Part shown: positions 51,757 to 52,116 of the stretch, one piece after another | How positions within the stretch are numbered: position 1 is the stretch's first letter | Layout: the number at the start of each line of letters is the position of its first letter | From: Candidatus Poribacteria bacterium | GTDB taxonomy: Bacteria; Poribacteria; WGA-4E; WGA-3G | DNA: 64,000 nucleotides | Direction: 5' to 3' | Assembly: GCA_012267415.1 (NCBI GenBank) | Contig: JAAXGN010000015.1 | Location: forward strand, 62,001-126,000 | Notes under the pieces: generated by a model | Seen by the model: the letters and a program-made list of their open reading frames with translations, nothing else | The model's database searches: none | Told to the model about the DNA's origin: nothing | Translations under genes and position numbers: made by a program

Positions 51757-51797
51757 GTTGTCACCTATGATGAAATATAAAAATATGTTGACACATC

Positions 51798-51873
51798 TGA
51801 CTGGTAGGAGGGAACTCCGATTTCCGACTTTTATAGTGTTTGGTCAGGAATCGGAGTTCCCTCCTACCAGTCA
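51798..51873. repeat. 25-bp perfect hairpin repeat (family E core)
   Basis: TGACTGGTAGGAGGGAACTC-CGATT at the left is exactly complemented at 51849-51873, with a 26-nt loop. The arms contain the GGAACTCCGATT core seen in repeat family E. It sits between rsr and the Y RNA terminator and touches the U tract. Confidence 0.8.
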
Positions 51874-51935
51874 AAAAAAGGCGGGCAAGGTACGTATTGC
51901 GAATATACAATGGGTAACGCAATACTTCGGCCCGC
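51873..51935 (-). terminator. Terminator of the Y RNA
   Basis: GCGGGC (51930-51935) pairs with GCCCGC (51881-51886) and an inner GTATTGCG (51918-51925) with CGCAATAC (51894-51901), followed by seven U (51873-51879). The long two-part hairpin may also serve as a module of the RNA. Confidence 0.8.
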
Positions 51936-52081
51936 ACAATCAGGACTCTGGATAAGAATCGGAATACAGACGCTCTACCGCTGAGCTACAGCAGGTTTTG
52001 CATTACACTCTACCCGCTGGCAGGAGTCGAACCTGCGACCCGATAACGCATTCACACGACCCAGAGATAAATCTTTTATGA
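51873..52081 (-). ncRNA. yrlA: Bacterial Y RNA (YrlA-type, tRNA-mimicking) partner of Rsr
   Basis: About 209 nt. In transcript order: outer stem 5' strand (52059-52066) and inner 5' strand (52047-52053), T arm GCAGG-TTCGACT-CCTGC (52020-52036), acceptor 3' strand CAGCGGG (52013-52019), a 17-nt closing loop (51996-52012), acceptor 5' strand CCTGCTG (51989-51995), T-A, D arm GCTC-AGCGGTA-GAGC (51972-51986), then inner 3' strand (51962-51968) and outer 3' strand (51946-51953). All seven acceptor pairs form (one G-U). The two outer stems pair 8 and 7 bp and replace the anticodon arm. This matches published descriptions of bacterial Y RNAs, whose ends form the Ro60-binding stem. Promoter and terminator are annotated separately. 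Confidence 0.85.
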
Positions 52082-52087
52082 ATTTTA

Positions 52088-52116
52088 ATTCTACCACATC
52101 GGATAGGGGTTGTCAA
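52088..52116 (-). promoter_or_regulatory. Promoter of the Y RNA
   Basis: TTGACA (52111-52116), 17 bp, TAGAAT (52088-52093). The expected start is close to 52081, which gives an RNA starting some 15 nt before the outer stem. The remaining 52117-52345 is AT-rich leader of the plus-strand gene without further genes. Confidence 0.85.

What the first reader, a model, noticed from the sequence alone, without database searches (positions are those of the whole stretch)
51873..52116. Ro60 partner RNA: a self-contained transcript folding as a tRNA mimic with swapped halves
Directly seen: a sigma70 promoter (TTGACA-N17-TAGAAT), T arm and 3' acceptor strand placed before 5' acceptor strand and D arm, seven paired acceptor positions closed by a 17-nt loop, two outer helices (8 and 7 bp) joining the transcript ends, and a terminator. 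Established: bacterial Y RNAs of the YrlA type have this tRNA-like module and bind Rsr; the rsr gene lies 117 nt downstream. Inference: the locus makes a Ro60-Y RNA particle, here without the RtcB or PNPase neighbours seen elsewhere. If the host is a Poribacterium-like lineage this widens the known range.
Basis: partly seen in the sequence, partly recalled or inferred. Interest (0 to 1): 0.92.

Follow-up and report, generated by a model that had tools for sequence, protein, structure and literature searches.

The report
Poribacterial Ro60-partner Y RNA pair

Summary
On the minus strand, 52066-51946 encodes a YrlA-type Y RNA: Ro-binding double helix, T arm, 7-bp acceptor stem closed by 17 nt, D arm. 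All seven acceptor pairs show compensatory double changes among Poribacteria. A covariance model finds it beside rsr in 14/14 congeneric genomes that have rsr; the 4/4 without rsr give only tRNA background.

Two corrections. (1) The 'terminator' (51935-51881) is a second, tRNA-less Ro-binding stem, conserved in 13/14 of these genomes; in eleven relatives it ends 15-62 nt before the rsr start, without a T run. The RNAs are therefore probably co-transcribed with rsr. In this genome a dispersed palindromic repeat lies between stem and rsr. (2) RtcB and PNPase are encoded elsewhere in the genome.

Ro-binding motifs occur in arrays around rsr across many phyla (142 on the rsr strand, 1 on the other). 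The element nearest rsr is usually tRNA-less (42/45); three bacterial stems exceed Rfam's cut-off for a nematode stem-bulge RNA family. Bacterial Y RNAs, including multi-RNA loci, are already known, so this is a new member of a known kind. Expression and Rsr binding are untested.

The parts
52111..52116 (-). -35 hexamer TTGACA
   Evidence: comparable sites in most relatives
52088..52093 (-). -10 hexamer TAGAAT (17-nt spacer)
51946..52066 (-). Y RNA A (YrlA type): Ro-binding stem carrying the permuted tRNA-like module, 121 nt
   Evidence: Rfam YrlA 31.8 bits; CM R1 138.5 bits; covariation; MFE fold
52059..52066 (-). outer helix 1, 5' strand CUCUGGGU (pairs with 51953-51946)
   Evidence: 144/144 cells paired in relatives
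51946..51953 (-). outer helix 1, 3' strand AUCCAGAG
52047..52053 (-). helix 2, 5' strand GAAUGCG (pairs with 51968-51962)
51962..51968 (-). helix 2, 3' strand UGUAUUC
52020..52036 (-). T arm GCAGG-UUCGACU-CCUGC
52013..52019 (-). 3' acceptor strand CAGCGGG
51996..52012 (-). 17-nt acceptor-closing loop (12-19 nt in most relatives, about 2-4 nt in one)
51989..51995 (-). 5' acceptor strand CCUGCUG
51972..51986 (-). D arm GCUC-AGCGGUA-GAGC
51881..51935 (-).
   Evidence: CM R2 73.4 bits, 13/14 congeners with rsr, 0/4 without; fold z -3.7
51873..51879 (-). T7 run after element B, lacking in relatives; possibly a terminator here only
51797..51874 (.). dispersed palindromic repeat between B and rsr; 122 half-site matches in the genome
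   Evidence: absent at this site in sister L025
50110..51756 (-). rsr (Ro60 ortholog), 548 aa
   Evidence: Pfam TROVE and vWA_Ro60; human, Deinococcus and Xenopus Ro60/Rsr structures at E < 1e-114

Best explanation
The locus encodes two Rsr-binding small RNAs and then Rsr itself, probably from one sigma70 promoter. RNA A is a YrlA-type Y RNA: its base is the Ro-binding double helix with an asymmetric internal loop, and its far end is a circularly permuted tRNA mimic. RNA B carries only the Ro-binding stem. Shown here: the sequence, the structure with covariation, genome-wide co-occurrence with rsr, promoter conservation, and conservation of Ro60 residue H187. Inferred: transcription, processing from a common precursor, Rsr binding, and the Y RNA's known role of tethering an effector (PNPase in Deinococcus) to Rsr and gating its access to substrates for RNA quality control. 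More tentative: B, lying in the rsr leader, competes for Rsr or lets Rsr regulate its own translation.
For: Rfam YrlA E 9e-5 in the window; full-length match at 40 bits in sister L025. Permuted tRNA module upstream of rsr in congeners. Acceptor covariation 7/7 pairs, 0/2000 shuffles. CM R1: 14/14 rsr-bearing congeners at 94-139 bits beside rsr (in G011 beside a broken rsr); the 4 rsr-less congeners have nothing above 35 bits, which is tRNA-cluster background. CM R2: 13/14 and 0/4. Ro motif GGRYCG..TTAYC: 142 copies on the rsr strand, 1 on the other, in 525 kb around rsr outside the genus; all 40 R2 matches there on the rsr strand. Same arrangement in mycobacteriophage Alice; phage Y RNAs are reported (PMC12282133). 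K170, R174 and H187 invariant in aligned Rsr and equal in human Ro60; H187S abolishes mYR3 binding in mouse Ro60 (PMC11277228). Promoters.
Against: No transcript, pull-down or structure data. Rfam gathering score not reached, but phage Alice (37.4 bits) and all other Y RNAs scanned here also fall below it. Folding energy of A alone is not exceptional (z -1.2). The R1/R2 models include the window sequence, so its own score is not independent.
Confidence: 0.92

Rival explanations
1. Two remnants of ordinary neighbouring tRNA genes (3' half of one, 5' half of the next) that look like a permuted tRNA.
For: Rfam YrlA and CM R1 do give weak matches (up to about 36 bits) on real tandem tRNA genes.
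Against: Those matches are about 100 bits below the locus. ARAGORN finds no tRNA here. The acceptor strands covary with each other across genomes and are enclosed by a conserved 8+7 bp stem. Presence tracks rsr.
Confidence: 0.02
2. A permuted tRNA gene that is spliced or circularised into a working tRNA.
For: The order 3' half before 5' half is that of permuted tRNA genes (from general knowledge).
Against: No anticodon arm between D and T arms; the corresponding ends form the Ro-binding helices instead. No CCA. Anticodon-free copies are conserved in relatives.
Confidence: 0.01
3. The structures are mainly a cis-acting leader of the rsr mRNA (autoregulation by Rsr), not free small RNAs.
For: In relatives element B ends 15-62 nt before the rsr ATG with no terminator between; the element nearest rsr is nearly always tRNA-less across phyla (42/45).
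Against: Y RNAs of Salmonella and Deinococcus are studied as separate RNAs bound by Rsr (PMC7790460, PMC4726728). Arrays of up to eight elements exceed what a leader needs. In the window genome a repeat and a T7 run separate B from rsr. The two roles are compatible.
Confidence: 0.1
4. Element B is just the intrinsic terminator of RNA A.
For: GC-rich 6-bp base followed by C and T7 in this genome.
Against: B is conserved in sequence and loop (invariant GAAG and CCTT, UUA at the loop start) in relatives, without a T run there. It has the Ro-binding motif found on the rsr strand in other phyla.
Confidence: 0.05

Closest known systems
YrlA (Rfam RF02553), Salmonella Y RNA with a tRNA-like module; structure 6CU1
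   Same: Stem from paired RNA ends, then T arm, acceptor, D arm in permuted order; lies beside rsr.
   Different: Sigma70-type promoter upstream, not in an rtcBA operon; RNAs upstream of rsr instead of downstream; 17-nt acceptor loop; scores below the Rfam cut-off.
Salmonella rsr-yrlBA-rtcBA RNA repair operon (PMC7790460)
   Same: Two Y RNAs encoded beside one rsr gene.
   Different: No RtcB neighbour here; gene order differs. YrlB could not be compared in sequence.
Deinococcus radiodurans Y RNA (Rfam RF01053) and the Rsr-Y RNA-PNPase particle RYPER
   Same: Y RNA beside rsr; PNPase gene present in this genome.
   Different: No Rfam RF01053 match in the window; PNPase tethering untested.
Mycobacteriophage Ro loci (e.g. 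phage Alice)
   Same: Array just upstream of rsr: plain Ro stem, tRNA-bearing stem with 16-nt acceptor loop, plain Ro stem.
   Different: Phage genome; 41% identical Rsr; three elements.
Nematode stem-bulge RNAs (Rfam RF01656) and vertebrate Y RNAs
   Same: Stem-only architecture with the Ro-type motif; human Y4 fragment begins GGCUGGUCCGAUGGUUAGUGGGUUAUC (PMC5331234). Stems next to rsr in L097, L051, L038 exceed the RF01656 cut-off of 38 bits.
   Different: The window's own element B gives no Rfam match.

Membership tests
Bacterial Y RNA, YrlA type | tRNA-like module with T arm and 3' acceptor strand before 5' acceptor strand and D arm | tested here: met
Bacterial Y RNA, YrlA type | 5' and 3' ends paired into a large stem that carries the Ro-binding site | tested here: met
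   8-bp and 7-bp helices with asymmetric internal loop, conserved in relatives
Bacterial Y RNA, YrlA type | encoded next to a Ro60 ortholog (rsr) | tested here: met
Bacterial Y RNA, YrlA type | reaches the Rfam RF02553 gathering score (69 bits); a database cut-off, not a biological feature | tested here: not met
   31.8 bits in the window; all other Y RNAs scanned, phage Alice included, score 28-43 bits, so the cut-off appears too strict for distant members
Bacterial Y RNA, YrlA type | bound by Rsr in the cell | not testable with these tools
   needs pull-down or gel shift; indirect support from conserved H187
Bacterial Y RNA, YrlA type | carries tRNA modifications (pseudouridine, dihydrouridine) | not testable with these tools
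   reported for YrlA (PMC8394870)
Ro60/Rsr protein | TROVE domain plus Ro60 vWA domain | tested here: met
RYPER (Rsr-Y RNA-PNPase) | PNPase present and tethered by the Y RNA | tested here: inconclusive
   PNPase gene present in the genome; tethering not testable
rsr-rtcBA RNA repair operon | rtcB adjacent to rsr | tested here: not met
   single RtcB on another contig
tRNA gene | complete cloverleaf with anticodon arm | tested here: not met
   ARAGORN finds none here

The most novel reading that the evidence does not exclude
Bacterial Ro loci follow a rule across phyla: one or more tRNA-bearing Y RNAs away from rsr, and a tRNA-less Ro-binding stem next to rsr. That stem is the bacterial counterpart of metazoan Y/stem-bulge RNAs and serves as a leader through which Rsr senses its own unbound pool and regulates its synthesis.
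Probability: 0.25. Interest if true: 0.65.

Novelty: new member of a known kind. Interest (0 to 1): 0.45.

Why it matters
It places a complete Ro60-Y RNA system in Candidatus Poribacteria, sponge symbionts for which the searched library holds no paper that also mentions Ro60 or Y RNA, with strict co-occurrence of RNA and protein within one genus. It also draws attention to tRNA-less Ro-binding stems beside bacterial rsr genes; some of them match a nematode stem-bulge RNA model, which gives a sequence-level link between bacterial and animal Ro RNAs and a testable idea of autoregulation.

Tried and rejected
Tandem or permuted tRNA genes. B as a plain terminator. Reading the weak CM matches in rsr-less congeners as Y RNAs: they are tRNA clusters. 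miRNA-type Rfam matches at 51797-51874: these are the hairpin of a dispersed repeat. Rfam on element B alone: no match. Papers on bacterial Y RNAs by Chen 2014, Wang 2018 and Sim & Wolin 2018 are not held, so what they list could not be checked. A first script for the tRNA-module tally had a bug and was redone.

Full report
What is there. All features lie on the minus strand. A sigma70 promoter (52116-52088) precedes a 121-nt element A (52066-51946), a 10-nt gap, a 55-nt element B (51935-51881), a T7 run (51879-51873), a dispersed palindromic repeat (51874-51797) and the rsr gene (51756-50110). The rsr product carries TROVE and Ro60 vWA domains and matches human Ro60, Deinococcus Rsr and Xenopus Ro at E < 1e-114.

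The isolated element folds without constraint into the proposed helices, although its energy is only 1.2 s.d. better than shuffles. The stronger evidence is comparative. In 18 distinct copies from Candidatus Poribacteria, outer helix 1, T and D helices pair in all cells. The acceptor stem pairs in 121 of 126 cells and all seven of its pairs show a change on both sides, which no shuffle of 2000 reached (the 3' strand of helix 2 was located by best match, so its count leans towards pairing; shuffles do not correct for relatedness). One relative has a very short acceptor loop (about 2-4 nt) and others extend the acceptor helix, as expected if the hairpin matters.

It folds 3.7 s.d. better than shuffles. 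Its motif GGGCCGAAG..GUUACC corresponds to A's GGGUCG..GUUAUC and to the human Y4 fragment GGUCCGAUGGUUAGUGGGUUAUC (sequence from PMC5331234; that it is Y4 is from general knowledge). In eleven relatives B ends 15-62 nt before the rsr ATG without a T run, so A, B and rsr are probably co-transcribed; in the window genome a dispersed repeat (122 half-site matches genome-wide) plus T7 separate B from rsr.

Genome-wide test. Within the genus, rsr is found in 14 of 18 genomes and in none of the 41 other members of the family searched. A covariance model of A gives 94-139 bits beside rsr in all 14 and, away from these loci, at most 36 bits, including in the 4 genomes without rsr, whose best matches are ordinary tRNA clusters. 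A model of B finds 13 of 14 and 0 of 4. In G011 the locus looks decayed: rsr is frameshifted with an ATA start, B's basal helix is broken, and A contains two tandem tRNA modules in one stem; assembly error is not excluded.

Wider comparison. A scan for Rsr gave 78 loci in named genomes. In the 65 outside the genus, the Ro motif occurs 142 times on the rsr strand and once on the other, in arrays of up to eight. All 40 matches of model B there are on the rsr strand. With arrays of two or more, the element nearest rsr lacks the tRNA module in 42 of 45 loci, against 72 of 113 for the others (Fisher p 1e-4, not corrected for relatedness; the motif used there is lax). Stem-only elements just upstream of rsr in Verrucomicrobia (L038, L051) and just downstream of rsr in an Anaerolineae genome (L097) exceed the gathering score of the nematode stem-bulge RNA family RF01656. 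A distant Poribacterium (L022) has three stem-type folds upstream of rsr and a tRNA-bearing one just downstream.

Mechanism. Established elsewhere: Rsr binds the lower stem of bacterial Y RNAs, and in Deinococcus the Y RNA tethers PNPase and gates substrates (PMC4726728, PMC8394870). Here the Rsr protein, the Ro-binding stems, the conserved residue H187 needed for Y RNA binding in mouse Ro60 (PMC11277228) and a PNPase gene are all present. That the particle forms and does RNA quality control is inference. That B mediates feedback on rsr is a guess from position.

Novelty. Y RNAs beside rsr in diverse bacteria and phages, more than one per locus, and the tRNA permutation are known (PMC7790460, PMC12282133, PMC11472068; from memory, Chen et al. 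2014 reported Y RNAs in over 250 species, at least one per species with a tRNA-like domain). This is a new member, in a lineage for which the held literature shows none; no held paper mentions Poribacteria together with Ro60 or Y RNA.

Noticed in passing
window 51797-51874: Near-perfect palindromic repeat (GGTAGGAGGGAACTCCGATT arms), 122 half-site matches in the genome, lying between Y RNA B and rsr; absent at this site in the closest relative.
   Followed up: partly
L037:3718-3913: A Y RNA with two tandem tRNA-like modules inside one Ro-binding stem, in a genome whose rsr is frameshifted and whose element B is broken.
   Followed up: partly
L044:2898-3964: Eight Ro-binding motifs upstream of one rsr (Abditibacteriaceae), none with a detected tRNA module.
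   Followed up: partly
L038, L049, L051, L094: Dense tRNA gene arrays beside rsr in Verrucomicrobia, some with unusual T loops (GGUGCGA, GGUGAGA instead of GGUUCGA).
   Followed up: no
L097:5687-5752, L051:3863-3936, L038:1365-1434: Bacterial stem-only elements beside rsr score above the Rfam gathering cut-off of the nematode stem-bulge RNA family RF01656.
   Followed up: partly
L028:3669-3745 and equivalents in L030-L034: A third element type, between two tRNA-bearing Y RNAs, with a longer apical region containing a conserved CGTTAGTGTCGCAGTAAAATGCGCCTA.
   Followed up: no
window 51996-52012: The 17-nt acceptor loop has a conserved GTGTAATGC/AATGTAATGT core in most relatives, of unknown role.
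   Followed up: no
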